From the NCBI RefSeq assembly GCF_015155755.1, contig NZ_VWPI01000058.1:1-53867 (forward strand): 53,867 nt of DNA, read 5' to 3'. The notes below the pieces were generated by a model, which was not told where the DNA came from, did no database searches, and saw only the letters and a list, made by a program, of their open reading frames with translations. The translations under genes and the position numbers were made by a program. The stretch is from Komagataeibacter sp. FXV3 (GTDB lineage Bacteria; Pseudomonadota; Alphaproteobacteria; Acetobacterales; Acetobacteraceae). Each line of letters opens with the position of its first letter. Positions within the stretch are counted from its first letter, which is position 1. Of this stretch, positions 1,328 through 53,392 are shown one piece after another.

Positions 1328-1410
1328 ATAAAAGTCTTCGGGTGCCGCCTTTTTTCAAAAAAGGCGGCGTTTGCCAAAGCCTTTGGAAAAAAAGCTTCAC
1401 CAAAAACTTT
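1328..1410 (+). repeat. 3'-end two-palindrome element, copy 1
   Basis: First of the dispersed elements. Read in the direction of the preceding gene it starts AAAAGTCTTCGGGTGCC. It then has a palindrome with arms GCCGCCTTTTTT and AAAAAAGGCGGC, and a second, imperfect palindrome around AAAGCCTTTGG and AAAGCTTCACC, and it ends CAAAAACTTT. It lies 16 nt after the stop of the DUF6056-like gene. The next gene (1423-1719) points back towards it. Confidence 0.85.
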
Positions 1411-1422
1411 TACTTTGACCTC

Positions 1423-1719
1423 TTACTGACCACCGTTACCGGGCGGCGGCGCGGACTGCGCGCCCCCTTCGGGCGGGCCATTTTCGGGCGGCTGCTGCTG
1501 GTTTTCACGCGCTTCCTTGCGCGCATGGTGGCGTCGCGCCATGCCTGCGGCACAACCGGCCGCCGCCCCGCCCTTGCCATGGCCACTGCCAACGAAATGC
1601 CCCGCCACGCCACCGGCGACGGCCCCCTTTACGCAGCCCCCCGGTTCCGCCTGCGCCGCAAGCGGCAGGGCGAGGACAGTCGTGGTGGCAAGGGCCAATG
1701 CGGTACGCCTGAAAAACAT
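1423..1719 (-). CDS. Small exported glycine-rich protein
   Basis: 98 residues. The N-terminus MFFRRTALALATTTVLALPL followed by AQA is a clear Sec signal peptide, with cleavage expected near residue 24. The mature part has a glycine-zipper-like stretch (GAVAGGVAGHFVGSGHGKGG) and a low-complexity, Pro/Asn/Gln-rich tail. Two cysteines (in GGCVKG and AGCAAG) could form a disulfide. Glycine-zipper proteins often associate with the outer membrane, but no specific function can be assigned. The gene is monocistronic and convergent with the preceding membrane-protein gene. Confidence 0.7.
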   Translation of the reverse strand: MFFRRTALALATTTVLALPLAAQAEPGGCVKGAVAGGVAGHFVGSGHGKGGAAAGCAAGMARRHHARKEARENQQQPPENGPPEGGAQSAPPPGNGGQ

Positions 1720-1901
1720 ATCTTATCCCATCAAATTGGTGTTGAAGCCTTTCAACGGTGGATACTGTCCGGGGTTCCCCCGTTTCGTTCCGGCACGGTT
1801 TCAAGGGGTATCAGGGAACGGCAGTCATGCAGGGGCAATGGTTGCCAGCCACCGTGGCATCTTTCATCCTCTGCCCATCAACCCAACGGGAGACTGCCGA
1901 C

Positions 1902-2090
1902 ATGGCCAAAGAACCGACAGACGTCATCCACGCCGCCCTGATCCACGCCGCCGCCACCCTGACGGCCGCGAAAAAGGACGTGATGGAAAAGGCTTCCCCT
2001 GACGAGGTGAAGAAGCATTTCAAGACCTTCCTTCACACGCTGGAAGAAGGCTGGCGCGAGCATGAGGCAGGCGATCACCACCATTCCTGA
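1902..2090 (+). CDS. Small acidic/basic helical protein, unknown function
   Basis: 62 residues starting MAKEPTDVIHAALIHAAATL. The start at 1902 is chosen because a purine-rich CGGGAGA lies about 9 nt upstream and the coding-like sequence begins there. The frame is open further upstream to 1758, but that part looks non-coding. The protein is predicted mostly alpha-helical with alternating charge and a His-rich end (GDHHHS). It has no signal peptide. An intrinsic terminator follows immediately, which supports it being a real transcript. Family not recognised. Confidence 0.65.
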   Translation: MAKEPTDVIHAALIHAAATLTAAKKDVMEKASPDEVKKHFKTFLHTLEEGWREHEAGDHHHS

Positions 2091-2110
2091 TCGCAGGGCA
2101 TGAATGCACG

Positions 2111-2150
2111 AAAGGGGGGCGGTACCATCTGGCACCGCCCCCCTTTTTTT
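2111..2150 (+). terminator. Rho-independent terminator after the 62-residue protein
   Basis: Stem arms AAAGGGGGGCGGT and ACCGCCCCCCTTT surround a short loop and are followed by a run of seven T. It lies 21 nt after the stop of the gene at 1902-2090 and is a textbook intrinsic terminator. Confidence 0.85.
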
Positions 2151-2217
2151 CATGTTTCCCGGACGGACCGGGGCCATGCACGCGCTGGTATCCCCGCAAA
2201 ATGTCCGGCAACCATAT

Positions 2218-2303
2218 GAAAGTTTCTGGTGAAGCTTTTTTCAGGAAGCTTCAGAAAACGCCGCTTTTTTAAAAAAGGCGATACCCAAAAAATTTCCTGT
2301 TTT
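2218..2303 (-). repeat. 3'-end two-palindrome element, copy 2
   Basis: Same element as at 1328-1410 but reversed. The AAGCTTTTTTCAGGAAGCTT palindrome comes first, then a slightly mutated CCGCTTTTTTAAAAAAGGCG palindrome. Its gene-proximal end lies 18 nt from the stop codon of the minus-strand gene at 2322-2618, so the polarity relative to the gene matches copy 1. The sequence has drifted more than the other full copies. Confidence 0.8.
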
Positions 2304-2321
2304 ATCAGTATATTATTCCAA

Positions 2322-2618: not shown

Positions 2619-2722
2619 GATTACCTTACCTGTCCTAAATGGTTTGTCAGATGCGGGCACGGACGCACCGGACGTCCATGCCGTGTCTGTATGCCAAACG
2701 CACCCGGCAACGCGGAGTTGCC

Positions 2723-3757: not shown

Positions 3758-3811
3758 CTTGCACCTTCCGTTCCGATGTCATGGCCCCGGCCATGGAGCC
3801 ACCATTCCTGC

Positions 3812-3846: not shown

Positions 3847-3899
3847 ATCATGTGTGGGCCAAGTGTCCCATCCCTGCCCCGTCGCAACCTTGATCTACG

Positions 3900-5159: not shown

Positions 5160-5170
5160 GTCGTCCGCCC

Positions 5171-9012: not shown

Positions 9013-9079
9013 GCGACACGCGCCATATGTGGCATGGCCATAAGGGACTGCTTCAGGGAAATCTGTTGATAGAACGTAG

Positions 9080-9163
9080 TAAAGATTTTTGGTGACGCTG
9101 TTTTCAAAAAGCTTCGGAAGACGCTGCCTTTTTGAAAAAAGGTGGCACCCGGAAACTTTTATT
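9080..9163 (-). repeat. 3'-end two-palindrome element, copy 3
   Basis: Contains TTTTCAAAAAGCTTCGGAAG followed by GCTGCCTTTTTG and AAAAAAGGTGGC. Palindromes are slightly mutated. The gene-proximal end is about 54 nt from the stop of the cardiolipin synthase gene at 9217, the largest gap in the set. On the other side lies the start of the cytochrome b-like gene. Confidence 0.82.
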
Positions 9164-9216
9164 GCTTATATGAAATGATAGGCATGCATGCCCACCCCTG
9201 TCAATTTGCCCCTTCC

Positions 9217-10644
9217 CTACAGGTAAGGCAGGAACAGCCGCGCCGCCGCATCACGCATTTTCAGCGGGAAGGACCGGCGGTCCAGGTCATGATGCGTCAG
9301 GCGCACATGGCGGTGGGTGGCGATGAAATCATCAATCATGGTCGCCAGTACCTCGTCATACGCTTCCAGGTTTATTTCAAAGTTCAGCCGCAGACTGCGC
9401 ACGTCCAGATTGGAACTGCCGACAAATGACCAGTGCCGGTCCACCACCATAAGCTTGGAATGGTTGAACGGTGGCCGCGCCAGCCAGATCCGGCAGCCCG
9501 AATCAAGGAAACGCGGCAGGTTGGCCGACCGCGCCCAGTCCAGCAGGATATGGTTGCTGTGCCATGGCACGACGATATCGACCTCGATCCCGCGCATGGA
9601 CGCAAGCGCAAGTGCGGTCAGGAACCGGTCATCGGGCAGGAAATATGGCGTCATGATCCGGATGCTGCGCCGCGCCAGGGTGAAGGCCTGCAGCATGGTG
9701 TATTCGATCTTTTCCAGATCCATGTCCGGACCTGCGGTCACGACGCGGCTCAGGCTGGGGCCATGGCTGTCCTGACGCGGGAAGTAGATGTCCGCCGTCA
9801 GTTCCTCGCCACGGGTAAAGGCCCAGTCACGGGCAAAAGCCTCGCTCAACTGGTGGACGATCGGGCCTTTTACTTCAAAATGCGTATCCGATACCGGGTG
9901 ACGGGGATGGGATGCGGCAATGTTTTCCACGCCGATGTTCAGGCCACCCATGAAACCGGTCAGCCCGTCCACCACCAGTATCTTCTTGTGGTCGCGCATG
10001 TTGATGAACGGCATGCGCCACGGCAGCATGGAATGCATGAACCGCCCCACCGGCACGCCCGCATCATGCAGGATGCGCCCCACGCCACAGTTGAAATACC
10101 CCGACCCCACGCCATCAACCAGCACGCGCACCTGCGCGCCACGCCTGTGGGCTGCGATCAGCGCATCACAGAACTGCCGCCCGATCCGGTCATCACGGAA
10201 AATGTACGAACACATCAGCACGCTGTGCCGCGCGCCGTTGATGGCATCCAGCATGCGGGGATAGACGGTGTCCCCATCATGCAGGGGCATGATCGCGTTA
10301 CCGCCCAGCAGCGGCCGGCCGGTCAGCTTGCCCACCATGGAAGCCAGCGGCGCGAACACCCCGGATTCGTCACGCCGCCATTGCGATGACATGGTGCGGC
10401 TGCGCCACGGGTGCTGTCCCGCCATGCGCCGCGCGCGCCGGTGCACGCGGTTGATGCCGAACATCAGGTACAGCGCCCCGCCCGTCAGCGGCATGAGCAC
10501 GGTCACGCCAATCCAGCCGATGGACGCCCCGACATCGCGCTTGGTCAGCAGCACATGCACCACCACCGCCGTGATAATGGACACGCGCGCCAGCAGCAGG
10601 CAAAGATCCCATATGGTCAGGAAATGAAGAAGCATGTCGCACAT
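9217..10644 (-). CDS. cls: Cardiolipin synthase (phospholipase D superfamily)
   Basis: 475 residues. Two N-terminal transmembrane helices (about 10-32 and 42-63) precede two PLD half-domains with full HKD motifs: H219-K221-D226 in DHKKILVVDG and H395-K397-D402 in NHSKLMVVDRHW, each followed by the GG/GS-N signature. The enzyme condenses phosphatidylglycerol into cardiolipin at the inner membrane. A second ATG at 10635 (MLLHFL) has a better-placed AGGA upstream and may be the true start. Divergent from yraN. Confidence 0.92.
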   Translation of the reverse strand: MCDMLLHFLTIWDLCLLLARVSIITAVVVHVLLTKRDVGASIGWIGVTVLMPLTGGALYLMFGINRVHRRARRMAGQHPWRSRTMSSQWRRDESGVFAPLASMVGKLTGRPLLGGNAIMPLHDGDTVYPRMLDAINGARHSVLMCSYIFRDDRIGRQFCDALIAAHRRGAQVRVLVDGVGSGYFNCGVGRILHDAGVPVGRFMHSMLPWRMPFINMRDHKKILVVDGLTGFMGGLNIGVENIAASHPRHPVSDTHFEVKGPIVHQLSEAFARDWAFTRGEELTADIYFPRQDSHGPSLSRVVTAGPDMDLEKIEYTMLQAFTLARRSIRIMTPYFLPDDRFLTALALASMRGIEVDIVVPWHSNHILLDWARSANLPRFLDSGCRIWLARPPFNHSKLMVVDRHWSFVGSSNLDVRSLRLNFEINLEAYDEVLATMIDDFIATHRHVRLTHHDLDRRSFPLKMRDAAARLFLPYL

Positions 10645-17488: not shown

Positions 17489-18841
17489 TCAGTCCCGCGC
17501 GGGGCCGGGCTCACCAAACACGCGGCTGTAGGTATGGTCGATCTGGCGCAGGTGGGCATTGCTGTCCATGGCCGCGTCCAGCACTTCGGGCGGCACCCGG
17601 CCCGCGACCTCGGGGTCGGCGTCCAGGTTCTCGCGGAAGGTCCTTGCGCCCTTCTGGCCCAGCTTCGTCCATGTCTCCATGGCGTTGCGCTGGACGATGC
17701 GGTACGCATCCTCGCGCAGGATGCCCGCGCGCGCCAGCGCCAGCAGCACCTCGCCCGAATGCACCACCCCGCCCAGGCTGTCGATGTTGGCCTGCATCTG
17801 ATCGGGATAGACCACCAGCTTTTCCATCATGCCCGCAAGCCGCATCAGCGCGAAGTCGAGGCCAATCGTGCCATCGGGGCAGATGTTACGCTCGACCGAG
17901 GAATGGCTGATGTCACGTTCATGCCACAGCGCCACGTTCTCCAGCGCCGGGATGACGTGCGCGCGCACAAGGCGCGCCAGCCCCGTCAGGTTTTCCGACA
18001 GCACCGGGTTGCGCTTGTGCGGCATGGCGGACGAACCCTTCTGCCCCTTGTGGAAGAACTCCTCCGCCTCACGCACTTCCGAACGCTGCAGGTGGCGCAC
18101 TTCGGTCGCCAGACGCTCTATCCCGCTGGCGATCACCGCCAGCGCGCAGAAATACGCCGCATGCCGGTCGCGGGGGATCACCTGCGTGGACACGCCTTCG
18201 GGTTCCAGACCCAGCTTCACGGCCACGTATTCCTCAACGCGCGGGTCGATATGGGCATAGGTGCCCACCGCGCCGGAAATGGCGCAGACGGCGATTTCCG
18301 CACGCGCGCGGACCAGGCGTTCACGGTTGCGGGCGAATTCGGCATAATGCCCCGCGATCTTCAGGCCGAATGAAGTCGGCTCGGCATGGATTGCGTGGCT
18401 GCGGCCGATGGTCAGGGTATGCTTGTGTTCGAACGCCCGGCGCTTCAGCGCCGCCAGCACCGCGTCCAGATCGGCCAGCAGCAGGTCGGTCGCCTGCACC
18501 ATCTGCACCGACAGGCAGGTGTCCAGCACGTCGGACGATGTCATGCCCAGATGCACGAAGCGGCTGTCCGGCCCCACCTTTTCCGCCAGCCACGTCAGGA
18601 ACGCGATCACGTCGTGGCGGGTTTCGGCCTCGATTTCATCAATGCGGTCAAGGTCCGCCTGTGAAAAGGCGGCCATGGCGGCATCGCCCTTCGTGCGGAT
18701 GGTCTTTGCGGCCTCGGCCGGGATCGCGCCATATTCCGCCATGGCTTCACAGGCCAGGGCCTCGATCTCGAACCAGATTCGGTAACGGTTCTCTGGCGAC
18801 CAGATGGCGGCCATGACGGGGCGGGTATAGCGCGGTACCAT
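17489..18841 (-). CDS. purB: Adenylosuccinate lyase
   Basis: 450 residues from the ATG at 18841 (MVPRYTRPVMAAIW). Cleaves SAICAR to AICAR plus fumarate and adenylosuccinate to AMP plus fumarate. Visible: VHLGMTSSDVLDTCLSVQM with catalytic serine/threonine region, TIGRSHAIHAEPTSFGLK with catalytic His, and the fumarase-superfamily signature GSSAMPHKRNP. A longer start at 18862 exists but is not needed. Divergent from terC. Confidence 0.96.
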   Translation of the reverse strand: MVPRYTRPVMAAIWSPENRYRIWFEIEALACEAMAEYGAIPAEAAKTIRTKGDAAMAAFSQADLDRIDEIEAETRHDVIAFLTWLAEKVGPDSRFVHLGMTSSDVLDTCLSVQMVQATDLLLADLDAVLAALKRRAFEHKHTLTIGRSHAIHAEPTSFGLKIAGHYAEFARNRERLVRARAEIAVCAISGAVGTYAHIDPRVEEYVAVKLGLEPEGVSTQVIPRDRHAAYFCALAVIASGIERLATEVRHLQRSEVREAEEFFHKGQKGSSAMPHKRNPVLSENLTGLARLVRAHVIPALENVALWHERDISHSSVERNICPDGTIGLDFALMRLAGMMEKLVVYPDQMQANIDSLGGVVHSGEVLLALARAGILREDAYRIVQRNAMETWTKLGQKGARTFRENLDADPEVAGRVPPEVLDAAMDSNAHLRQIDHTYSRVFGEPGPARD

Positions 18842-18921
18842 GTTCTCGGGCTTCCTTTGCACAGATGGGCGATACGGGATCAGGCGGCCTTCCTAGCCAA
18901 TTCTGCCGCGTGCGTCTCCCT

Positions 18922-18941
18922 TATATTCACCTATATTCACC
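18922..18941. repeat. Tandem 10-nt duplication between purB and terC
   Basis: TATATTCACC is repeated twice head to tail in the 236-nt divergent region. It lies about 80 nt upstream of purB and 137 nt upstream of terC. It could be a paired operator or chance. No known regulator site is recognised. Confidence 0.4.
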
Positions 18942-19077
18942 TGTGATTCATAACGTGGCATATAACACGCGCCGGAACGGGTGTGTTTGCATGATGCGGG
19001 CGGCAAACGGCATAAAGCGATTGTGAAACCCCGCGCCATTCCCGCCGTGGCCCATTGTCCCAGGAACGTATCTGTCC

Positions 19078-19683
19078 ATGTCCGCCATTTTTTCCGCCTC
19101 CTCCCTGTACGCACTGGCGCAGGTTGTCCTGATTGACGTGACGCTGGCGGGGGACAACGCCATCGTGGTGGGGATGGCGGTGCGCAACCTGCCGCATTCC
19201 TCGCGCCGAATCGCCATCCTGTGCGGCGTGCTGGGGGCGGCGGTCATCCGCATCTGCCTGGCGCTGGTGGCGGTCAGGCTGCTGGCCATCATCGGGCTGA
19301 CGCTGGCGGGCGGGCTTCTGCTTTTGTGGGTATGCTGGCGCATGTACCGTGAAATGGGCGGCGACGCCCATGCCGAAGGGGATGCCCCCGCGCCTGCCTC
19401 GCTGCGCAACGCCATCATCCGCATCATCGTGGCCGACCTGTCCATGAGCCTTGATAACGTGCTGGCGGTGGCCGGTGCGGCGGGCGAGCACATGGGCGTG
19501 CTGGTGGCGGGGCTGGTCATATCGGTGGTGCTGATGGCGGTGGCGGCGTCGCTGATCGCGCGCCTGCTGGAACGCTATCGCTGGATTTCGTGGGTCGGGC
19601 TGCTGGTGGTGCTGGCGGTGGCGATCGAACTGATCGTCAAGGGCGGGGGCGAGGTCTGGACCCATGTGGGGAGCGGCGCATAA
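19078..19683 (+). CDS. TerC family membrane protein
   Basis: 201 residues with about six or seven transmembrane helices. The duplicated signature DVTLAGDNAIVVGMA near residue 20 and DLSMSLDNVLAVAGAAGEH near residue 120 identifies the TerC/YjbE family. Members export Mn2+ or load it onto secreted proteins, and some confer tellurite resistance. Starts the terC-slt-pgpA-pncC run. Its TAA stop overlaps the ATG of the next gene by one base. Confidence 0.9.
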   Translation: MSAIFSASSLYALAQVVLIDVTLAGDNAIVVGMAVRNLPHSSRRIAILCGVLGAAVIRICLALVAVRLLAIIGLTLAGGLLLLWVCWRMYREMGGDAHAEGDAPAPASLRNAIIRIIVADLSMSLDNVLAVAGAAGEHMGVLVAGLVISVVLMAVAASLIARLLERYRWISWVGLLVVLAVAIELIVKGGGEVWTHVGSGA

Positions 19684-22652: not shown

Positions 22653-22670
22653 CCGCTGCTTCAGAAAGCG

Positions 22671-22961
22671 TTAGTATCCGGCAACCGTGCTGCCCGTTTC
22701 AGGCACGCGGATGACCGGTGCGGTCTGGCCCGTGCCCTCGGCCTGCACCGGGTGGCCGGAGCTGGCGACGGGAGCGGCAGGCGCGGTCTTGAGTGACGCA
22801 CGGGCCTTCTGCAGGCTCTGGTCATTCAGGTCGGCGGTTTCCGCATCACTGGCGGCAACGGATTCCCGGCTGGCGTGATGGGACGACGCGGGCGCTGCAG
22901 ACGCAGGCTGCGCCATGCACAGCAGCACGCCCCCTGCCATGGCGGTCATAATGATTTTCAT
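22671..22961 (-). CDS. Small exported Ala/Ser/Pro-rich protein
   Basis: 96 residues. Signal peptide MKIIMTAMAGGVLLCMAQPA then SAAPASS. The mature part is low-complexity, rich in Ala, Ser, Pro, Thr and Val, with a short helical stretch (DAETADLNDQSLQKARASLK) and a C-terminus ending TVAGY. No domain recognised. Probably periplasmic or surface associated. It follows the coq10-lipA genes' promoter-distal end on the same strand after 39 nt. Confidence 0.6.
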   Translation of the reverse strand: MKIIMTAMAGGVLLCMAQPASAAPASSHHASRESVAASDAETADLNDQSLQKARASLKTAPAAPVASSGHPVQAEGTGQTAPVIRVPETGSTVAGY

Positions 22962-24481: not shown

Positions 24482-24620
24482 GACGCAAAAATTCCCGTAA
24501 ACAGGCAGATAACCAGAAGTGTAACGCCTGCCCCACCACGTCAAGCGTTCTTGCCACCTTCGCCCCGGCCGGGGATCACAACCGCACGATCAGCCCGGCC
24601 ATCCCCTGCGTTTCAGACAA

Positions 24621-24714
24621 CAGAAAGTTTCTGGTGAAGCTTCTTGCAAAAAGCTTCAGGGAACGCCGCCTTTTTGAAAAAAGGCGGCGCCCAAAAAAAA
24701 TTCCCCTTTTTTAT
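24621..24714 (-). repeat. 3'-end two-palindrome element, copy 4
   Basis: Contains GTGAAGCTTCTTGCAAAAAG, then GCCGCCTTTTTG with AAAAAAGGCGGC, then AAAAAAAATTCCCCTTTTTT close to the lpd stop at 24718. Gap to the stop codon is 3 nt. Polarity relative to lpd is the same as in the other copies. Confidence 0.85.
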
Positions 24715-24717: not shown

Positions 24718-26127
24718 TCAGATATGCAGTGCCCCGTCATAGGCCGCCAGCACCGCTTCGTGCATGGTTTCCGATATGGTGGGATGCGGGAAGATGGTTT
24801 CCTTCAGTTCCGCGTCCGTCAGTTCCCCGGTGCGGGCAATGACGTAACCCTGGATCATCTCGGTCACTTCGGCACCGACCATGTGGGCGCCCAGCAATTC
24901 ACCGGTGGCGTCGTCAAATATGGTCTTGACCATGCCCTCCGGCTCCCCCATCGCAATCGCCTTGCCATTGCCGATGAAGGGGAAGCGCCCGATACGCAGC
25001 TTATGACCCGCAGCCTTCGCCTTTTCCTCTGTCATGCCAACCGATGCCACCTGCGGGCGGCAATAGGTGCAGCCGGGAATGTTCAGCGGGTGGATCGGGT
25101 GGACGGTGCGGCCCGCGATCTGTTCGGCCACCATCACGCCTTCATGGCTGGCCTTGTGCGCAAGCCACGGGGCGCCGGCGATGTCGCCAATGGCATACAC
25201 CCCCTTTTCCCCCGTGCGGCAATAGGGATCGACCTTGATATGGGTGCGGTCCACTTCGATCCCGGTGCCCTCCAGGCCGATATTCTCGACATTGCCGACA
25301 ATGCCGACCGCCGAGATCACGCGTTCCACCATGACCTGCTGCACCTTGCCGCCCACGGTCACGTCAATGGTGACGGCATTGTCGCCCTTGCGGATCGCGC
25401 CCAGCTTCGCCCCGGTCAGGATCTTCATCCCCTGCTTTTCCAGCGCCTTGCGGGCAAAGGCGCTGATTTCCGCATCTTCCACCGGCAGGATGCGGTCGGC
25501 GACTTCCACAATCGTCACCTCCGCGCCCATGTTGCGGTAGAAGGAGGCAAATTCGACCCCGATCGCCCCTGACCCGATCACCAGCAGGCTGCGCGGCAGT
25601 TCCCCGGGCACCATCGCCTCACGATAGGACCAGACCAGCTTGCCATCGGGTTCCAGACCCGGCAGCACGCGGGCACGCGCGCCCGTGGCCACGACCACGT
25701 TGGGCGCGGTCAGGGTGGCGGTTTCCTTCCCATCCACGCTGACCGATACCTTGCGCTGTCCGCCCGCAGTACCCGCCAGCCTGCCAAAGCCGTTGATGAC
25801 CGTGACCTTGTGCTTTTTCAGCAGGTGCGCGACACCGGCGGAAAGCTGGGCCGCGACATTGCGTGACCGCTTGATGACCCTGGCGAAGTCAAAGCGCACA
25901 TTGTCCGCCGCAAACCCGAATTCGCCAAGGTTGTGCAGCAGGTGGTTGATTTCGGACGCGCGCAGCAGCGCCTTGGTCGGGATACAGCCCCAGTTGAGGC
26001 AGATGCCCCCAAGCTGGGCGGCCTCGACCACCGCGACCTTCAGCCCAAGCTGGCCCGCGCGGATGGCCGCGACATAACCGCCCGGCCCGCCGCCGATGAT
26101 AATGACATCAAATTGCGTGGTGCTCAT
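24718..26127 (-). CDS. lpdA: Dihydrolipoyl dehydrogenase (PDH E3)
   Basis: 469 residues. FAD-dependent disulfide oxidoreductase that reoxidises dihydrolipoyl groups with NAD+. N-terminal FAD motif DVIIIGGGPGGYVAAIRAGQ; redox cysteines C43 and C48 in GGICLNWGCIPTKALL; NAD motif SLLVIGSGAIGVEFASFY; C-terminal base in FPHPTISETMHEAV. Last gene of pdhA-pdhB-pdhC-lpd, 12 nt after pdhC. Confidence 0.96.
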   Translation of the reverse strand: MSTTQFDVIIIGGGPGGYVAAIRAGQLGLKVAVVEAAQLGGICLNWGCIPTKALLRASEINHLLHNLGEFGFAADNVRFDFARVIKRSRNVAAQLSAGVAHLLKKHKVTVINGFGRLAGTAGGQRKVSVSVDGKETATLTAPNVVVATGARARVLPGLEPDGKLVWSYREAMVPGELPRSLLVIGSGAIGVEFASFYRNMGAEVTIVEVADRILPVEDAEISAFARKALEKQGMKILTGAKLGAIRKGDNAVTIDVTVGGKVQQVMVERVISAVGIVGNVENIGLEGTGIEVDRTHIKVDPYCRTGEKGVYAIGDIAGAPWLAHKASHEGVMVAEQIAGRTVHPIHPLNIPGCTYCRPQVASVGMTEEKAKAAGHKLRIGRFPFIGNGKAIAMGEPEGMVKTIFDDATGELLGAHMVGAEVTEMIQGYVIARTGELTDAELKETIFPHPTISETMHEAVLAAYDGALHI

Positions 26128-26139: not shown

Positions 26140-27402
26140 TCAGACCACAAGGCTCATGGGGTTTTCGACCACGTTGCGGAAGGCTGATACCCATTCCGCC
26201 GCCAGCGCGCCGTCCACCACGCGGTGGTCAACCGACAGGGTCACGGTCATGACGGTGGCGATGGTGATTTCATCCCCCTTCACCACCGGCCTGCGCTCAC
26301 CCGCCGCAATGGCCAGGATACCGGCCTGTGGCGGGTTGAGGATGGCGGAAAACGCCTTCACCCCATACATCCCCATGTTGGAGATCGAGAACGTGCCGCC
26401 CTGGAATTCCTCCGGCTTCAGCTTGCCCGCGCGCGCGCGGGTGGCCAGGTCGCGGATTTCGGTGCTGATCTGGCGCAGGCCCTTGGTGTCGGCACGGCGC
26501 ACGATGGGCGTAATCAGCCCGTCGGGGATGGAGACGGCAACAGAAATATCCACGTCGTCATATACCAGCGTCGCATCATCGCTGTACGCCACGTTCACCT
26601 TCGGCACGCGGCGCAGCGTAAGGGCTGCGGCCTTCACCAGCATGTCGTTGACGGAAATCTTGTACGCGCCCGGCCCCTCGGCGGGGGATGCGGCGTTCAG
26701 CTGCCTGCGCAGCGCCATCAGCGCGTCAAGCTGCACATCCATTTCCACATAGAAATGCGGAACGGTGGTCTTGGCTTCCGTCAGCCTGCGCGCGATCACC
26801 TTGCGCATGGTGGAATGCGGCACGCTTTCATACCCGGCACCAGCCTCCACCGGGGCCACCGCCGGGGTTGCGGGTTTCGGCGCGGGGGCCGGGGCCTGCG
26901 GTGCGCTGGCGGCCTGTTCCACGTCCCGGCGCACGATGCGGCCGTTGGGGCCGCTGCCCTTCAGCGTGGACAGGTCAATGCCCTTGCCTGCCGCGATCCG
27001 GCGCGCCAGCGGGGAGGCGAAAACCCGCTTCCCCGTGCCCGCCGGGGCGGCCTGCGGCGCGGGGGCCGCGCTGGCCGCGGCAGGTGCCGCCGTCGCCACG
27101 GGGGCCGGAGCCGCCGCCGGGGTCGCAGGGGCGGACACGGCGGTGTCAGGCACACTTTCGCCTTCGGCCACCAGTATGCCGATGGGGGTGTTGACGGCGA
27201 TGCCTTCCGTCCCTTCCGGGATCAGGATACGGCCCAGCACGCCTTCATCCACGGCCTCGACTTCCATCGTGGCCTTGTCGGTCTCGATTTCCGCAATCAC
27301 GTCGCCTGCGGCAATCGCCTCGCCTTCCGCCTTGACCCAGCGGGCCAGCTTGCCTTCCTTCATGGTGGGCGACAGGGCGGGCATCAGGATGTTGATGGAC
27401 AT
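26140..27402 (-). CDS. pdhC: Dihydrolipoamide acetyltransferase (PDH E2)
   Basis: 420 residues from the ATG at 27402 ([14 protein letters not shown]). One lipoyl domain with lipoyl-lysine K43 in ETDKATMEV, an Ala/Pro-rich linker, a peripheral-subunit binding domain (ASPLARRIAAGKGIDLSTLK), a second linker, and the catalytic domain ending with the active-site SVDHRVVDGALAAEW. Forms the core of the complex and passes acetyl groups to CoA. The lipoyl-domain DNA shares a 66-nt perfect repeat with pdhB. Confidence 0.95.
   Translation of the reverse strand: MSINILMPALSPTMKEGKLARWVKAEGEAIAAGDVIAEIETDKATMEVEAVDEGVLGRILIPEGTEGIAVNTPIGILVAEGESVPDTAVSAPATPAAAPAPVATAAPAAASAAPAPQAAPAGTGKRVFASPLARRIAAGKGIDLSTLKGSGPNGRIVRRDVEQAASAPQAPAPAPKPATPAVAPVEAGAGYESVPHSTMRKVIARRLTEAKTTVPHFYVEMDVQLDALMALRRQLNAASPAEGPGAYKISVNDMLVKAAALTLRRVPKVNVAYSDDATLVYDDVDISVAVSIPDGLITPIVRRADTKGLRQISTEIRDLATRARAGKLKPEEFQGGTFSISNMGMYGVKAFSAILNPPQAGILAIAAGERRPVVKGDEITIATVMTVTLSVDHRVVDGALAAEWVSAFRNVVENPMSLVV
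27241..27306 (-). repeat. 66-nt perfect repeat, pdhC copy
   Basis: Identical base for base to 28626-28691 in pdhB. It encodes the lipoyl-domain segment around [15 protein letters not shown]. Identity includes third codon positions, which protein constraint alone would not preserve. Confidence 0.85.
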
Positions 27403-27416: not shown

Positions 27417-28787
27417 TCACACAACCTGCCGGACGGCATTGATGATCCAGTCCGGGTTGGGCAGCGCGAGTTTTTCAAGGTTGGCGGCGAACGGCATGGG
27501 CACATCGGCCCCGGCCACGCGCACCGGTGGCGCGTCAAGGTAGTCAAAGGCGTGTTCGATCACCTGCATGGCGATTTCCGCGCCAATGCCCGCGAACGGC
27601 CAGCCTTCTTCCACCGTGACCAGGCGGCTGGTCTTCTTCACGCTGTCCACCACGGTCTGGGTATCCAGCGGGCGGATGGTGCGCAGGTTGATGACCTCGG
27701 CCTCGATCCCCTGCTCCGCCAGTTTCGCCGCCGCTTCCAGCGCCGTGCCCACCATGATGGAGAAGGTGACGATGGTCACGTCCGTGCCCGCGCGCTCGAT
27801 CTTCGCCTTGCCGATCGGCAGGATGAAGTCCTCATCCACCGGACAGGGGAAACGCTGTCCGTACAGGATTTCGTTTTCAAGGAAGATGACCGGGTTGGGA
27901 TCGCGGATGGCGGCGCGCAGCAGGCCCTTGGCGTCCGCTGCCGACCAGGGCGCCACCACCTTCAGCCCCGGCACATGGCCGTACCAGCTTGCGTAACACT
28001 GCGAATGCTGCGCGCCCACGCGGGCAGCCGCGCCATTGGGGCCACGGAACACGATGGGGCACGACATCTGCCCGCCCGACATGTAGCGCGTCTTGGCGGC
28101 GGAATTGATGATCTGGTCAATGGCCTGCATGGCGAAGTTCATGGTCATGAACTCGACAATCGGCTTGAGCCCGGTCAGCGCGGCGCCGATGGCCATGCCG
28201 GTAAAGCCCTGTTCGGTAATGGGGGTGTCGATCACCCGCTTTTCGCCAAACTGGTCCAGCAACCCCTGCGAGACCTTGTACGCGCCCTGGTACTGGGCCA
28301 CTTCCTCACCGATCAGGAACACGTCCCCGTCCCGCGCCAGCTCGGCGGCCATGGCGTCGCGCAGGGCTTCGCGCACGGTAATCTCGGCGGTTTCGCCCCA
28401 GTCCTTTTCCGGCTGGGCGGATACGGGCGGCGCGCTGGGGGCGGCTGGCGTCGGGCCACAGGACGGCGATGCGGCAGGGGCCGCAGCCGCACCGGCAGCC
28501 GCCGCGCCGGGGGCAGCAGTGGCAGGCTGCGCGTCCGCGTCCTCACCTTCGGCCAGCACGATGGCGATGGGCGTGTTGACGGCCACGTTTTCCGTCCCCT
28601 CGGGGATCAGGATGCGACCCATGATGCCTTCATCCACGGCCTCGACTTCCATCGTGGCCTTGTCGGTCTCGATTTCCGCAATCACGTCGCCAGCCGCAAT
28701 GGCCTCGCCCGGCCTGCGCAGCCAGCGTGCCACCTTGCCCTCCTTCATCGTGGGGGACAGGGCGGGCATGAGTATTTCTGTTGCCAT
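27417..28787 (-). CDS. pdhB: Pyruvate dehydrogenase E1 beta subunit with N-terminal lipoyl domain
   Basis: 456 residues. The N-terminal lipoyl domain (about 1-80, lipoyl-lysine K43) is fused through an Ala/Pro-rich linker (80-125) to a standard E1 beta: [20 protein letters not shown], then [40 protein letters not shown], and [20 protein letters not shown]. The lipoyl fusion on E1 beta is a known feature of alphaproteobacterial PDH. Together with PdhA it decarboxylates pyruvate with thiamine diphosphate. 7 nt after pdhA. Confidence 0.96.
28626..28691 (-). repeat. 66-nt perfect repeat, pdhB copy
   Basis: Partner of 27241-27306. The flanking bases differ on both sides, so the identical tract is sharply bounded, as expected for a gene-conversion patch. 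Confidence 0.85.
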
Positions 28788-33359: not shown

Positions 33360-33417
33360 GAAATCACCTTGCGAAATGTTTCAGGTCCCTGCCATTGAAA
33401 CGGGCCGCAAACCCGGA

Positions 33418-33500
33418 GATGTTCCTGGTGAAGCTATTTTCAAAACGCTTCAGGAAAGAACGCCGCCTTTTTTGAAAAAAGGCGGCGCCCAAAAACTTTC
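33418..33500 (-). repeat. 3'-end two-palindrome element, copy 5
   Basis: GTGAAGCTATTTTCAAAACG then GCCGCCTTTTTT with AAAAAAGGCGGC and CCCAAAAACTTTC. The gene-proximal end is 8 nt from the trpE stop at 33509. It sits inside what would otherwise be a trpE-trpG operon junction. Confidence 0.85.
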
Positions 33501-33508
33501 GTCCCCGT

Positions 33509-35077
33509 TTACGGGGCATCTCCCGTGGCGAAGCGCACCGCCTCCTCCGCCGCGCGGAACAGGGCGCGGGCCTTCTGGCGGGTTTCCTCATATTCCGCGT
33601 CGGGCACGCTGTCGGCCACGACGCCACAGCCCGCCTGCACGTACATCCGCCCGTCCTTGACCACCGCCATGCGCAGGCCGATGCAGGTATCCATGTCCCC
33701 ATCCGGGCCGAAATAGCCGATGCACCCGGCATAGGTGGCGCGCCGGGTCGGCTCGACCTCGTCAATGATTTCCATGGCGCGGATCTTGGGCGCACCGGTC
33801 AGGGTGCCGGCGGGGAAGCCCGACATCAGCGCGTCCAGTGCCTCAAGGTCGGGGCGCAGCGTTCCCTCCACATTCGACGAGATGTGCATGACATGGCTGA
33901 AACGTTCGATCACGAACTGCTCCGTCACCTTTACCGAACCCAGTTCGCACACCCTGCCCACGTCGTTGCGGCCAAGGTCGATCAGCATCAGGTGCTCGGC
34001 GCGTTCCTTGGGATCGGCCAGCAGTTCGGCCTCCAGCGCCAGATCCTCCACTGTCGTGCGGCCACGCGGGCGGGTACCGGCCAGCGGGCGCACGGTCATG
34101 GTGCCTTCGCGCAGGCGCACCAGGATTTCGGGCGAGGACCCGACAAGACTGAACCCGTCCAGGTCAAGGTAGAACAGGAACGGTGCCGGGTTGATCCGCC
34201 GCAGCGCGCGGTACAGCGCGAATGGCGGCAGGGTGAAGGCCGCGCTGAAACGCTGGCTGGGCACGATCTGGAATGCGTCCCCCGCCGCGATATAGTCCTG
34301 CAGCCTGCGCACCACGTTGCAGAATTCCTCCCGCGTCATGGTGGATTGCGGCACGGGGGCCGCGATCTCGCCCGCTGGCCCGTCAGGCAGTTCAACCGGG
34401 GTGGACAGCGCCGCGCGGGCCTGCTGCAGGCGGTCCTGTGCCGCATCCCACACGGCTTCGGCTGTCTGGCCCGGCATGGGACGCAGGGGGGCGGCCAGCA
34501 GCAGTTCGTCACGCACCGTGTCGAATATCGCGAACAGGCCGGGCCGGATCATGATGCCTTCGGGCAGGTCGAGGTCATCGGCCGGCATGTCGGGCAGGTG
34601 TTCGACCTGCCGGATCATGTCATAGCCGAGGTAGCCGAACACGCCGCCGGTCATGGGCGGCAGCCCTTCGGGCAGGTCCATGCGGCTTGCGTGCAGGATG
34701 CGGCGCAGGGACACCAGCGGCGCGTCTGTTTCAGGTACGAAGGCATGGGTGGCGGCTGCCGGGTCGGTGCATACGCTGGCCCGCCCGTCATGGCAGCGCC
34801 AGATCAGGTCGGGCAGCAGGCCGATGACCGAATATCGCCCGCGCGACGTACCGCCCTCGACACTTTCCAGCAGGAAGGCGTTATGCCCGCCATTGCCGCC
34901 GCCATGGCTGCGCGCAAGGCGTGACAGCCGCAGGAAGGCGGCCACCGGCGTCAGCAGGTCCGCAGGCTCCACCCGCCATGCCACGGTACTCCTGCCCGCG
35001 CGCAGGTCGGCCAGGGCCGCCTCGCGCCGGGCGGCATCAACGGGCCGGAAGGAGGGGCGTGGGGCGTGTGCTGTCAC
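33509..35077 (-). CDS. trpE: Anthranilate synthase component I
   Basis: 522 residues from a GTG at 35077, whose GTGA overlaps the ppiD stop. Chorismate-binding enzyme: feedback-site region LLESVEGGTSRGRYSVIGL near residue 70, then MTREEFCNVVRRLQDYIAAG near 250, and the conserved catalytic stretch TVRPLAGTRPRGRT, LIDLGRNDVGRV and FPAGTLTGAPKIRAMEIID. Makes anthranilate with TrpG. Followed by an element copy instead of trpG directly. Confidence 0.95.
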   Translation of the reverse strand: MTAHAPRPSFRPVDAARREAALADLRAGRSTVAWRVEPADLLTPVAAFLRLSRLARSHGGGNGGHNAFLLESVEGGTSRGRYSVIGLLPDLIWRCHDGRASVCTDPAAATHAFVPETDAPLVSLRRILHASRMDLPEGLPPMTGGVFGYLGYDMIRQVEHLPDMPADDLDLPEGIMIRPGLFAIFDTVRDELLLAAPLRPMPGQTAEAVWDAAQDRLQQARAALSTPVELPDGPAGEIAAPVPQSTMTREEFCNVVRRLQDYIAAGDAFQIVPSQRFSAAFTLPPFALYRALRRINPAPFLFYLDLDGFSLVGSSPEILVRLREGTMTVRPLAGTRPRGRTTVEDLALEAELLADPKERAEHLMLIDLGRNDVGRVCELGSVKVTEQFVIERFSHVMHISSNVEGTLRPDLEALDALMSGFPAGTLTGAPKIRAMEIIDEVEPTRRATYAGCIGYFGPDGDMDTCIGLRMAVVKDGRMYVQAGCGVVADSVPDAEYEETRQKARALFRAAEEAVRFATGDAP

Positions 35078-44557: not shown

Positions 44558-45769
44558 ATGACGGATATCTCGCGCCGCGCCATCATGACCGGAGGCCTTG
44601 GCCTGCTGGGGGCCACCGCCCTGACCACCCACGCCCTGTCCCCCACCGCCGCGCATGCCGCATCGCCCCCGCAGGCTGCGCGCCCGCGTGCCCGCGCGCT
44701 GGGCCTGCCCATGCAGGGGCAGACCGGCCCGGACAATGCCATTACCGATGTCGCGGGCGTGCGGGTCGGGCATACCACCCTTATATCCGGGCATGGGGAC
44801 CATGCGGTGCGCAGCGGGGTCACGGCCATCCTGCCGCGTGCGCCGGGCGCGCTCATGCAGCCGTGCTGGGCCGGGACGTTTTCCATGAACGGGAACGGGG
44901 AAATGACCGGCACCCACTGGATCGAGGAAGCGGGCTGGTTCATGGGGCCGATCGCCATTACCAACACCTGTTCCATCGGCACCGCGCACCAGGCCGTGGC
45001 CCGGTGGATGGTGCGCAGTTTTCCCGACCGCATGGGCGAGGACATCTGGCCCCTGCCGGTCGTGGCCGAAACCTATGACGGATGGCTGAACGATATTGGC
45101 GGGTTCCACGTCACCGAACGCCACGTTCTGGACGCCATCCGAAACGCCCGCACCGGCCCGGTGGCCGAAGGCAACGTGGGCGGCGGCACCGGCATGATCA
45201 CGTATGAATTCAAGGGCGGCATCGGCACGTCATCGCGCCAGGTGGAAACCAGCGCGGGCCAGTACACCGTGGGCGTGCTGGTGCAGGCCAATAACGGCAT
45301 CCGCCCGTGGCTGAAGGTCTGCGGCGCGCCGGTGGGACTGGTGATGAAGGAAGACGAGGTCTGGACGAAGGAAAAAGGCTCCATCATCATCATTGTCGCG
45401 ACCGACGCCCCGCTCATGCCCACGCAGTTGCGCCGCATGGCCAAGCGCGCGGGTATTGGCATGGGGCGCTTGGGCACGCCGTCGGGCAATGATTCGGGTG
45501 ACCTGTACCTGGCCTTCACCACTGCCAATGATCCCGGTGAATACCCGGTAAAGGACCGCGTGCATATCGACGCCCTGAATGATGATGACATGGACGCCAT
45601 GTTCATGGGGGTTGTGCAGGCGGTGGAGGAATCCGCCATCAACGCCCTGCTGGGCGCGCGCACCATGACCGGTCGCCGCAACCGGACGGTCCATGCCATA
45701 GACCCCGAGCGCCTGCGTGACCTGGTGCTGAAGGCGAACGAACCCTTTGCCCATGCCGATCGGGGATAA
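44558..45769 (+). CDS. Tat-exported P1 family peptidase (DmpA/aminopeptidase-esterase type)
   Basis: 403 residues from the ATG at 44558. The N-terminus SRRAIMTGGLGLLGATAL is a Tat signal (twin Arg), cleaved near AHAA. The mature part is a P1/DmpA hydrolase: DNAITDVAGVRVGHTTLISG, the VGGGTGMITYEFKGGIGTSS segment, and the autoprocessing site before the nucleophile S313 in SGNDSGDLYLAFTTAN. Family members self-cleave there and act as D-/beta-aminopeptidases. The residue before Ser is Asp here rather than Gly as in DmpA. Periplasmic location suggests action on D-amino-acid or beta-amino peptides. Confidence 0.88.
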   Translation: MTDISRRAIMTGGLGLLGATALTTHALSPTAAHAASPPQAARPRARALGLPMQGQTGPDNAITDVAGVRVGHTTLISGHGDHAVRSGVTAILPRAPGALMQPCWAGTFSMNGNGEMTGTHWIEEAGWFMGPIAITNTCSIGTAHQAVARWMVRSFPDRMGEDIWPLPVVAETYDGWLNDIGGFHVTERHVLDAIRNARTGPVAEGNVGGGTGMITYEFKGGIGTSSRQVETSAGQYTVGVLVQANNGIRPWLKVCGAPVGLVMKEDEVWTKEKGSIIIIVATDAPLMPTQLRRMAKRAGIGMGRLGTPSGNDSGDLYLAFTTANDPGEYPVKDRVHIDALNDDDMDAMFMGVVQAVEESAINALLGARTMTGRRNRTVHAIDPERLRDLVLKANEPFAHADRG

Positions 45770-45820
45770 GGCGGCGTATTCCGAAGCGTTCTGAAAACAG
45801 CGCCACCGGAGACATCTTCA
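45770..45820 (+). repeat. Decayed half copy of the 3'-end element, copy 8
   Basis: Immediately after the P1 peptidase stop: GCGGCGTATTCCGAAGCG then TTCTGAAAACAGCGCCACCG and GAGACATCTTC. This follows the second half of the element (GGCGGCGTTCCTGAAGCTT, then TTTGAAAAAAGCTTCACCAG) with substitutions and lost palindromy. Polarity relative to the gene matches all full copies. Confidence 0.55.
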
Positions 45821-46602: not shown

Positions 46603-46662
46603 TATCACGATACGGTTTCCGGTTGCATTCAACGGTTGCGACCGGAAACCATGCTTCAAAAT

Positions 46663-46748
46663 ACAGAAGTTTCTGGTGAAGCTTTTTTCAAAAAGCTTCA
46701 AGGAACGCCGCCTTTTTGAATAAAGGCGGCACCCAGGAACTTTTATTA
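46663..46748 (-). repeat. 3'-end two-palindrome element, copy 6
   Basis: The cleanest copy: AAGCTTTTTTCAAAAAGCTT perfect palindrome, then GCCGCCTTTTTG with AATAAAGGCGGC, then CACCCAGGAACTTTTATTAC. Its gene-proximal end is 15 nt from the receptor stop at 46764. The distal end is 60 nt from the convergent sodC stop. Confidence 0.88.
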
Positions 46749-51790: not shown

Positions 51791-51955
51791 GTATCTTTCG
51801 GTCGCGGCATTATCGATAAACTAGGCTTCCAGCATGAGCCGGGAACATATTGCAAGGGTGGGATAGTCTTTCCCGCGCAGATAGCACAATATACGCATTC
51901 AGGCAGGCCCTGTCTTTCCTGTCGGTTCCGACAAACCGGATCATATGGTTGTTTC

Positions 51956-52345
51956 ATGACTGCACGTTCATTCCTGCTGGCGGCCGCCTGCGTGGCCTGC
52001 CTTTCCCTTGCCGCTTCCCCCGCGCGCGCCGATGCCAAGAATGACCCGCAGGGGTTATGGACGGGGCAACTGGTGCGTGATCAGGGCAACTGCACCACCG
52101 AAACCGGCAATACCTCGACCTTCCAGATCGGCACGAAACGCATGACGTTCACCCCCGCCGATGGCTCCATCGCGCTGACGGGCGTGCCGCAGAAAAATGC
52201 CGACCTGTACCATACCGAAACCGTGGTCAGGCAGGCATCGGGTGCGGCCTTTCCCATGGTGTTCGAAGCCCGCCCCGAAGGCGACACGATGGTCGGCACC
52301 TATGGCACCCCGCGCTGCCGGGCGCATATCGTGCTGAAACGCTAG
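51956..52345 (+). CDS. Small exported protein, unknown function
   Basis: 129 residues. Signal peptide MTARSFLLAAACVACLSLAA then SPARA|DAK. Mature protein about 104 residues with two cysteines (GNCTTETG and RCRAHIVLKR) likely forming a disulfide, and alternating strand-like segments (LWTGQLV, STFQIGTKRMTF, TMVGTYG). Probably a small periplasmic beta-barrel-like domain. The frame is open far upstream through guaA, but the signal peptide fixes the start. Not assigned to a family. Confidence 0.75.
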   Translation: MTARSFLLAAACVACLSLAASPARADAKNDPQGLWTGQLVRDQGNCTTETGNTSTFQIGTKRMTFTPADGSIALTGVPQKNADLYHTETVVRQASGAAFPMVFEARPEGDTMVGTYGTPRCRAHIVLKR

Positions 52346-52441
52346 CGTTTTTCCTGCCTGCCGGGTCGTGTTCACGCAATCGGGAACAAAGTGGTCCGAT
52401 ACAGGCATGGATGCCGGGCCTCGATCCGATATATTCCCTAT

Positions 52442-52948
52442 ATGGCTGATAACATGACACTAGCCGGGGCTGTCCTGTCCATTGTGGTCCGTAACGGGCG
52501 CATGCTGCTGGTCTGCAGGCGCAACCCGCCGGACCAGGGGCTGTGGGGTTTTCCCGGCGGCCGCATCGAATATGGCGAAAGCTATCTGGACGCCGCAGCG
52601 CGCGAACTGCGGGAGGAAACCGGCTTCATCACCCATGCCGAAGGCACGCTGACGGCCTTTGACCTGATCGACCGTGACAGCGCGGGCCGGATCCGCTTCC
52701 ACTACCTGATCGTGGCCGTGCAATGCCATGACAATGGCTGGACCGACATCGCGGCGGGTTATGATGCGTGTGACGTGGGGTGGTTTGACCTGGCGCAGGT
52801 GCGCGCCAGTCCCGCCGCCTTCAGCCCCGGCCTGCTGGAACTGGGTACGCTGGCCCTGTCCCCGCGTGGCATCGCCCCATGGCCGGTAGCCGCACAGATA
52901 CGCACCCCCGCCCCCCATTCCACCCGGACCGAGAGCATTCCGTCATGA
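52442..52948 (+). CDS. Nudix hydrolase
   Basis: 168 residues from MADNMTLAGAVLSIVVRNGR. Complete Nudix box at residues about 40-62: GRIEYGESYLDAAARELREE then TGF. Upstream GLWGFPGG is typical. Closest by feel to ADP-ribose pyrophosphatase / NUDT-type enzymes that remove nucleoside diphosphate derivatives; substrate unknown. Its stop overlaps the start of the receiver gene (ATGA). Confidence 0.9.
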   Translation: MADNMTLAGAVLSIVVRNGRMLLVCRRNPPDQGLWGFPGGRIEYGESYLDAAARELREETGFITHAEGTLTAFDLIDRDSAGRIRFHYLIVAVQCHDNGWTDIAAGYDACDVGWFDLAQVRASPAAFSPGLLELGTLALSPRGIAPWPVAAQIRTPAPHSTRTESIPS

Positions 52949-53292
52949 CCCAGATTTCTGCCCTGATTGTCGAGGATGAGGCGACGATAGCGGAACTGGT
53001 CGCCACCATGCTGGAGGCAAACGGCATCCATGCCACCATAAGCCCCGACGTGGCGGACGCCATGCAGCGGATCGGGACGACGCGCTTTACGCTGGCGCTG
53101 GTGGACCTGACGCTGCCCGATGGCGACCCCGATGCCCTGATCGCCACGGCACAGGCCCAGGGCTGCCATGTGATCGTGATGAGCGGCGACCCCGACCGTC
53201 TGGCCGGTTACGCGCCGCTGCCGCTGCTGGAAAAACCCTTCCGCATGAAGGCATTGCTGGAACAGGTGCGTCAGGTTGCCCCGGCAGCCTGA
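52945..53292 (+). CDS. Stand-alone response-regulator receiver protein
   Basis: 115 residues, a receiver domain only. Acidic pocket ALIVEDEAT, phosphoacceptor Asp in LALVDLTLPDGDPD near residue 54, the Ser in VIVMSGD, and conserved Lys in LLEKPFRMKALLEQV. No output domain, so it probably acts by protein contact (CheY/DivK-like) or as a phosphate sink. Coupled to the Nudix gene. No cognate histidine kinase is in the window. Confidence 0.92.
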   Translation: MTQISALIVEDEATIAELVATMLEANGIHATISPDVADAMQRIGTTRFTLALVDLTLPDGDPDALIATAQAQGCHVIVMSGDPDRLAGYAPLPLLEKPFRMKALLEQVRQVAPAA

Positions 53293-53310
53293 TCCTGAAC
53301 GCTTCAGAAG

Positions 53311-53392
53311 CAAGGGGTTTTGGTTCAGCTTTTTTCAAAAAGCTTCAGGCAACGCCGCCTTTTTGAAAAAAGGCGGCGCCCGGAAACTTTTA
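53311..53392 (-). repeat. 3'-end two-palindrome element, copy 7
   Basis: AGCTTTTTTCAAAAAGCTTC, then GCCGCCTTTTTG with AAAAAAGGCGGC, then CCCGGAAACTTTTAATGC. Gene-proximal end 8 nt from the stop at 53401. The other side faces the receiver gene stop at 53292. Confidence 0.87.

What the first reader, a model, noticed from the sequence alone, without database searches (positions are those of the whole stretch)
1328..53392. Family of ~80-bp two-palindrome elements locked to gene 3' ends with fixed polarity
Seven near-identical elements occur in 54 kb (1328, 2218, 9080, 24621, 33418, 46663, 53311). Each has two tandem palindromes with A/T-rich centres: one with GCCGCC/GGCGGC arms, one with GAAGCT/AGCTTC arms, flanked by AAAACTTT-like and GGTGAAGC-like ends. 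In every case the GCCGCC side faces the 3' end of the adjacent gene, 3-54 nt after the stop codon, whichever strand that gene is on. This strict orientation suggests a function at transcript ends (3' end formation, RNA protection, paired terminators) or an insertion target preference. They are not classic terminators since the T runs are inside the stems.
Basis: partly seen in the sequence, partly recalled or inferred. Interest (0 to 1): 0.8.

Follow-up and report, generated by a model that had tools for sequence, protein, structure and literature searches.

The report
Tiny mobile DNA at gene ends
The repeated two-hairpin sequences are hundreds of copies of a small jumping element of acetic acid bacteria that settles just behind genes, mostly between genes that point at each other; they are interesting for where they sit and because one copy's core is flipped in some relatives, but they look like a new family of a known kind and not a proven new gene-ending signal.

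Summary
In detail: seven copies at the stated places, GCCGCC side facing a gene 3' end 4-52 nt away in all seven. Four lie between convergent genes, so only three test polarity. Among 203 copies from 2.05 of 3.61 Mb, 120 are convergent, 74 tandem, 5 divergent. Polarity is not locked: 44 of 74 tandem copies. Near the stop codon (<=54 nt) a real bias remains, 35 of 46; a hold-out declared beforehand gave 16 of 20. The 88-nt unit is the core of a ~162-bp element with 15-bp terminal inverted repeats (GAGACTGTTTGAAAA) and TNA target duplications. It was found in all 19 searched genomes of the genus and 0 of 41 others. Presence varies between species, and behind lpd the core is inverted in place in 3 of 9 carriers. 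Best reading: a genus-specific MITE, probably moved by an IS5-family transposase not yet found; its place reflects TNA targets, including stop codons, and tolerance of 3' gaps. A terminator role is possible, unproven.

The parts
1326..1415 (-). MITE core copy 1; GCCGCC side at the low coordinate, 14 nt after the gene ending at 1311(+); other side 7 nt from the gene ending at 1423(-); convergent gap; same orientation in relative G011
   Evidence: E 9e-22
2214..2300 (+). MITE core copy 2; GCCGCC side 21 nt from the stop of the gene at 2322(-); convergent gap; no core copy detected at this place in relative G011
   Evidence: E 3e-21
9077..9164 (+). MITE core copy 3; tandem gap; GCCGCC side 52 nt from the stop of the phospholipase-D-like gene at 9217(-); same place and orientation in G005, G011, G010
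   Evidence: E 3e-21
24619..24706 (+). MITE core copy 4; tandem gap; GCCGCC side 11 nt from the stop of the dihydrolipoamide-dehydrogenase-like gene (lpd) at 24718(-); core inverted at this site in G016, G009, G002
   Evidence: E 5e-23
33413..33504 (+). MITE core copy 5; tandem gap; GCCGCC side 4 nt from the stop of the trpE-like gene at 33509(-); seen in 4 of 19 genus genomes
   Evidence: E 3e-18
46661..46748 (+). MITE core copy 6; convergent gap between the Cu/Zn superoxide dismutase gene (46602, +) and the TonB receptor gene (46764, -)
   Evidence: E 2e-28
53308..53395 (+). MITE core copy 7; convergent gap between a response-regulator gene (53292, +) and the gene at 53401(-); not compared with relatives
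   Evidence: E 1e-22
45768..45807 (-). degenerate partial copy (about 40 nt)
   Evidence: inverted-repeat pairs I4, I6, I7
22653..22670 (.). unoccupied site: 18-nt convergent gap whose orthologous place holds an element in G005 and G010, in opposite orientations, next to the TTA (= TAA stop) of the gene at 22671(-)

Best explanation
The repeat is the conserved ~88-nt core of a non-autonomous transposable element (MITE) of about 162 bp, found here in one acetic-acid-bacterial genus only. It ends in 15-bp inverted repeats (GAGACTGTTTGAAAA) and duplicates a TNA target. SHOWN: inverted ends, TNA bias outside the ends, identical TNA on both sides of several of the least decayed copies, presence/absence between species, genus restriction in the sample, many intact ends in relative G005, and core inversion at one orthologous site. 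INFERRED: an IS5-family transposase acts in trans. It accumulates after genes because (i) TAA and TGA stop codons and their complements are TNA targets whose duplication leaves the reading frame intact, and (ii) convergent gaps are where an insertion harms neither promoter nor gene. Much of the apparent polarity in the window is small numbers plus convergent geometry; the remaining near-stop bias (about 3:1) is partly tied to arm length, because the GCCGCC-side arm (most often 33 nt, often shortened) is shorter than the other (most often 41 nt), and may partly reflect selection for the GC hairpin close behind the gene.
For: Ends: 57 of 402 flanks match the 15-mer at >=12/15, 0 of 402 shuffled; the three bases outside are TNA in 34 of 57 (intergenic TNA frequency 5.2%). 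Duplications: 5 of 18 full-length copies have identical TNA on both sides, four of them among the six best-scoring. A copy with intact ends in G005 contig C16 is flanked by TTA on both sides, and one in contig C20 by TAA. G005 has 47 exact 15-mers, 8 pairs at one fixed spacing. Distribution at E<=1e-12: 19 of 19 genus genomes including its own, 0 of 17 others in the family, 0 of 24 in the class. Sites, read by eye: trpE occupied in 4 of 19, lpd in 9 of 19; window 22653 empty where G005 has TTA on both sides of an element that lacks its left arm. Stop-codon insertions: 6 of 41 recognised ends facing a 3' end lie within 2 nt of the stop (5 TAA, 1 TGA). Location. Orthologous copies differ at many core positions (by eye), and stem covariation among 33 copies is not above letter shuffles.
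Against: No autonomous element with the same ends was found: of 115 IS5-family (PF13340) matches in 4 genomes, 30 loci were read and one has similar ends (12 of 15). Most copies lack recognisable ends: 173 of 255 profile hits reach neither end, so a core that spreads or is kept without arms is possible. 13 of 18 full-length copies lack an identical TNA pair. Two searches for a clean empty site of well-preserved copies failed because flanks had diverged or lay apart. The near-stop bias in copies with short gene-facing flanks (tandem, d<=25: 26 GC-first, 6 AT-first) is not explained by arm length alone. Some paired changes speak for structure being kept: at two GC-stem pairs 11 of 203 copies have both sides changed, and sodC copies of G011 and G005 have both arms of the AT hairpin changed (by eye); not tested against relatedness, and template-switch correction of palindromes could give the same.
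Confidence: 0.82

Rival explanations
1. A dispersed bidirectional transcription terminator or mRNA 3'-end stabiliser: the branched hairpin with A-rich upstream and U-rich downstream flanks works on both strands, spread as a mobile element and was kept because it ends transcripts, better when the GC hairpin is met first.
For: 44 of 55 convergent gaps of 100-149 nt hold a copy, against 6 of 134 tandem and 0 of 38 divergent gaps (gap length includes the element). With elements masked, genes with a copy within 40 nt have another classical terminator in 9 of 187 cases; genes whose copy is farther have one before it in 37 of 120; a sample of genes without a copy in 57 of 320; shuffled unmasked stretches give 9, 8 and 18. 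With the element unmasked, convergent genes within 40 nt pass the crude rule in 32 of 86 when GC comes first and 15 of 63 when AT comes first. Polarity near stops is 35 of 46. Two GC-stem pairs show 11 of 203 copies with both sides changed.
Against: No long U tract directly after either stem in the consensus; a copy within 40 nt leaves little room for another terminator; no excess of compensatory changes among 33 copies; the G-U asymmetry in 203 copies rests on a few columns (my reading); opposite core orientations occur behind the same gene; absent from many orthologous genes.
Confidence: 0.25
2. A REP/BIME-type repeat spread by a RAYT (Y1) transposase.
For: High copy number, palindromic, extragenic, 3'-end location.
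Against: No Y1_Tnp (PF01797) match in the window's own genome, while 5 of 14 control genomes ring; ~162-bp unit with inverted ends and TNA duplications.
Confidence: 0.03
3. A fixed structural RNA or 3'-UTR element inherited vertically with its genes.
For: Same orientation at sodC in G000, G011, G005, G010, at trpE in 4 of 4 carriers, and behind the phospholipase-D-like gene in its six carriers (by eye).
Against: Patchy presence, no Rfam match at gathering threshold in the window, TNA duplications and many intact ends in G005.
Confidence: 0.03

Closest known systems
Small bacterial MITEs reviewed by Delihas (PMC2229807, passages seen), e.g. the pneumococcal RUP (107 bp, repeated 108 times, ends like IS630-Spn1, TA target)
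   Same: <200 bp, terminal inverted repeats, short target duplication with T and A, high copy, probably moved by an IS transposase in trans
   Different: Different ends, TNA duplication, strong convergent-gap location, inner three-way structure; partner IS not identified
ERIC (PMC2229807, passage seen)
   Same: MITE-like repeat with stem-loop RNA; the review reports an orientation-dependent effect on upstream transcripts
   Different: No transcript data here; orientation is a partial bias only
Caulobacter CIR repeats (PMC2229807, passages seen)
   Same: Alphaproteobacterial intergenic repeat with stem-loops
   Different: The review says CIR only partly resembles MITEs; here inverted ends and duplications are seen
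REP/BIME with RAYT transposases (PMC2817692, search listing and start of abstract only)
   Same: Abundant extragenic palindromes
   Different: No RAYT in this genome; different ends and size
Insertion-sequence inversions by TIR-TIR recombination in Wolbachia (PMC3004938, outline and abstract seen; 9% of loci)
   Same: In-place inversion between inverted repeats of a mobile element
   Different: At lpd only the inner core is inverted, between the short inner repeats; the gene-side flank stays
IS5 family, IS1031 group of Acetobacter xylinum (TNA duplication recalled, not from a call)
   Same: Abundant IS5-family transposases in the genus; TNA target
   Different: No IS5-family element with identical ends among 30 loci read; nearest is 12 of 15

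Membership tests
MITE | Short unit in high copy | tested here: met
   Full copies ~162 bp; 203 deduplicated core copies in 2.05 of 3.61 Mb
MITE | Terminal inverted repeats | tested here: met
   15-bp ends; 57 of 402 flanks at >=12/15, 0 of 402 shuffled; 8 exact pairs at one spacing in G005
MITE | Target-site duplication | tested here: met
   TNA outside 34 of 57 ends; identical TNA on both sides in 5 of 18 full-length copies;
MITE | Insertion polymorphism between related genomes | tested here: met
   lpd 9 of 19, trpE 4 of 19 genomes (by eye); window 22653; no clean empty site in two further searches
MITE | Partner IS with matching ends | tested here: inconclusive
   30 of 115 IS5-family matches of 4 genomes read; best 12 of 15
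MITE | No protein encoded | not tested
   Length alone makes a transposase impossible; small ORFs not examined
REP/BIME with RAYT | Y1 (RAYT) transposase in the genome | tested here: not met
   0 matches of PF01797 in G000
Intrinsic terminator | GC-rich hairpin directly followed by a U tract | tested here: inconclusive
   A minority of copies pass a crude rule; in GC-first reading the GC hairpin is followed by GTTCTTT-like linkers
Intrinsic terminator | RNA 3' ends at the element | not testable with these tools
   No transcript data
Rfam family | Match above gathering score | tested here: not met
   0 matches in the window

The most novel reading that the evidence does not exclude
A transposable element that has become the genus's general-purpose, two-way transcript ender: it can enter at stop codons through TNA duplication without harming the gene, takes the place of lost native terminators at nearly half of convergent gene pairs, and its core can flip in place between its short inner inverted repeats, which would change how strongly each neighbour is terminated.
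Probability: 0.15. Interest if true: 0.75.

Novelty: new member of a known kind. Interest (0 to 1): 0.38.

Why it matters
It gives cellulose- and vinegar-making bacteria a repeat family that probably still moves (relative G005 carries many intact ends), that marks gene 3' ends and could serve for typing. Insertion at stop codons through TNA duplication is a simple, testable account of part of the crowding of small bacterial repeats behind genes. The in-place inversion of the core and the scarcity of classical terminators next to close copies make it testable whether mobile repeats take over transcript ending.

Tried and rejected
Strict polarity: rejected by 74 tandem copies. Selection on RNA pairing: the 33-copy alignment shows no covariation above letter shuffles, though it exceeds the slid versions, as any palindrome would; a G-U asymmetry in 203 copies rests, by my reading, on loop-proximal or variable columns, while two GC-stem pairs do show paired changes; left open. 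RAYT origin: no PF01797 in G000. Rfam: nothing at gathering threshold. A 2.77-kb pair of ends in G005 proved to be separate copies around ordinary genes. An exact 15-mer beside an IS5-like gene in G009 looks like a copy interrupted by another IS. Empty-site searches for two well-preserved copies found no clean junction. Core inversion relative to the arms is rare among paralogues: 65 flanks match the expected arm, 4 the other, of 406; 2 of 406 shuffled flanks are called at all. A gapped arm alignment suggested more ends at stop codons, but its shuffled control was not clean, so I used the ungapped count.

Rows dropped: the 203-copy set comes from alignments holding the best 150 of 241 rows and 150 of 196 rows, with both-strand and overlapping rows removed. 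Sampled contigs were chosen because they had hits, so densities may be too high. Two of the ten seed copies of the full-length profile proved to lack the GC-side arm. Gene calls are home-made. The hold-out hypotheses were written down before the stretches were fetched; the gene caller was remade between discovery and hold-out and both sets were recounted with it. Some hold-out copies had been seen earlier as sequence, without gene context.
Full report
OBSERVATION. The seven stated copies are real. A covariance model of 33 copies finds seven places in the window, with best-strand E-values between 2e-28 and 3e-18 in a 1.18-Mb search. Each has a GAAGCT/AGCTTC hairpin and a GCCGCC/GGCGGC hairpin; an outer stem GTTTTTGG/CCAAAAAC encloses both. 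The GCCGCC side faces a stop codon at 14, 21, 52, 11, 4, 15 and 5 nt. Copies at 1326, 2214, 46661 and 53308 lie between convergent genes, where both sides face a 3' end; only 9077, 24619 and 33413 lie between tandem genes and test polarity.

GENOME-WIDE TEST. The window is contig C163 of a 3.61-Mb genome. Element hits in plasmid records are Komagataeibacter (5) and Novacetimonas (1), which suggests the organism's group; its species was not determined. In the first 1.18 Mb the polarity held in 22 of 38 tandem copies of 45 bits or more; copies close to the stop held it more often. I wrote down the hypotheses, then fetched 0.87 Mb more. With one gene caller for both sets: discovery 22 of 39 tandem, 19 of 26 at d<=54; hold-out 22 of 35 tandem, 16 of 20 at d<=54 (one-sided p 0.006). 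Together: 203 copies, 120 convergent, 74 tandem, 5 divergent, 4 at contig edges, none with its midpoint inside a called gene; 44 of 74 tandem copies have the reported polarity, 35 of 46 at d<=54, 9 of 28 beyond. In convergent gaps the GCCGCC side is nearer in 67 of 118 untied cases. So the polarity is a partial bias near stop codons, not a lock.

LOCATION. Elements per kb: convergent 2.36, tandem 0.44 and 0.53, divergent 0.07; 119 of 264 convergent gaps hold one, and 44 of 55 convergent gaps of 100-149 nt. Gap length includes the element, so the last figure overstates preference. Some of the remaining convergent gaps hold partial copies, seen by eye.

WHAT IT IS. Printing the flanks of tandem copies showed shared sequence beyond the core. 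The unit extends to 15-bp ends, GAGACTGTTTGAAAA and its complement. With <=2 mismatches, 7 of 203 copies have both ends and 24 one; five of the seven are 162-164 bp, the others 154 and 174. A profile of ten seed copies (two of them cut short on the GC side) finds 255 non-overlapping places in 2.05 Mb, of which 18 reach both ends, 28 and 36 only one, and 173 neither; 5 of the 18 have identical TNA on both sides. At >=12/15 ungapped, 57 of 402 flanks carry an end, 0 of 402 shuffled; the bases just outside are TNA in 34 of 57. The distance from core edge to end is most often 33 nt on the GCCGCC side (10 of 25) and 41 on the other (17 of 32). Relative G005 has 47 exact ends, 8 pairs at one spacing, against 1 to 15 exact ends in seven other genomes, which suggests a recent burst; copies there show TTA and TAA duplications.

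COMPARISON BETWEEN SPECIES. At E<=1e-12, all 19 searched genomes of the genus, including its own, have the core (11 to at least 73, capped); 0 of 17 genomes of other genera of the family and 0 of 24 of the class do. Orthologous sites vary (read by eye): trpE 4 of 19, lpd 9 of 19. At lpd six genomes read GC first and three (G016, G009, G002) AT first, with the gene-side flank TTGATAAAAA kept: the core was inverted in place. At the convergent site 22653-22670 this genome is empty, while G005 and G010 carry an element in opposite orientations next to the same TTA stop; there the arms differ too, so independent insertion or whole-element inversion fits better. In G011, G005 or G010 five other window copies (1326, 9077, 24619, 33413, 46661) keep their orientation where compared, copy 2214 was not detected in G011, and 53308 was not compared. 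The attempted alignment of the 2214 site did not align well.

WHY IT SITS BEHIND GENES. TAA and TGA stops are TNA targets. Of 41 recognised ends facing a gene 3' end, 6 lie within 2 nt of the stop (5 TAA, 1 TGA); distances from stop to core on the GCCGCC side peak at 12-15 nt, near the length of the inverted end. This explains part of the association; tolerance of insertions in convergent gaps is my inference for the rest. The near-stop bias is carried mainly by copies with short gene-facing flanks (tandem, d<=25: 26 GC first, 6 AT first). Arm length contributes, but I cannot explain all of it; selection for a GC hairpin near the gene is possible.

TERMINATOR QUESTION. By a crude hairpin-plus-T rule with elements masked, genes with a copy within 40 nt have another terminator in 9 of 187, genes whose copy is farther have one before it in 37 of 120, and a sample of genes without one in 57 of 320; letter-shuffled unmasked stretches give 9, 8 and 18. 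This fits elements replacing terminators, but a close copy leaves little room, so it is not proof. Stem pairing gives mixed signs: no covariation above letter shuffles in 33 copies and orthologous cores that differ at many positions (by eye), but 11 of 203 copies with both sides changed at each of two GC-stem pairs and paired changes in sodC copies of G011 and G005 (by eye). Relatedness was not controlled, and template switching in palindromes can make such pairs without selection (established knowledge, recalled).

PARTNER. The genus is rich in IS5-family transposases (PF13340: 12, 23, 33 and 47 matches in G000, G005, G018 and G009). Of 30 loci read, none has the identical ends around a transposase; one element in G018 with an open 297-codon frame has ends 12 of 15 alike. 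The IS5 assignment is therefore an inference; that TNA is the duplication of the IS1031 group is recalled.

LITERATURE. Searches for Komagataeibacter with repetitive extragenic palindromic, with palindromic, and with miniature inverted listed no paper whose title describes this repeat; passages of PMC6528568 and PMC4686929 do not describe it. The library lacks most subscription papers, so novelty of the family is not proven.

VERDICT. A new family of a known kind (MITE), with an unusually strong convergent-gap location, a partial near-stop polarity, and one clear case of in-place core inversion.

Noticed in passing
L349 (G000:C50 about 18100-19100), L345, L354, L363: An IS5-family element with ends GGGTCTGTTGGGAATTAT (or GGGCCTGTTGGGAATTAT) lies inside or beside MITE-like sequence, in this genome and in relatives.
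   Followed up: partly
L332 (G005:C20:64200-67400): Three MITE copies within 3 kb around ordinary genes in relative G005; G005 has 47 exact MITE ends against 1-15 in seven other genomes.
   Followed up: partly
window 27158-27324 and 28543-28709: Two 167-nt stretches 88% alike in neighbouring genes upstream of the lpd-like gene, perhaps duplicated lipoyl-domain coding sequence (guess, not tested).
   Followed up: no
L292, L295-L298 (downstream of sodC-like genes in relatives): Related single-hairpin sequences (GCCGC...GGCGGC with outer arms) that lack the GAAGCT hairpin; possibly a shorter subfamily.
   Followed up: no
G000:C178:8167-8299 and G000:C53:10940-11053: Short copies (133 and 114 nt) with an end on each side, in which the two hairpins seem merged into one by internal deletion.
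   Followed up: no
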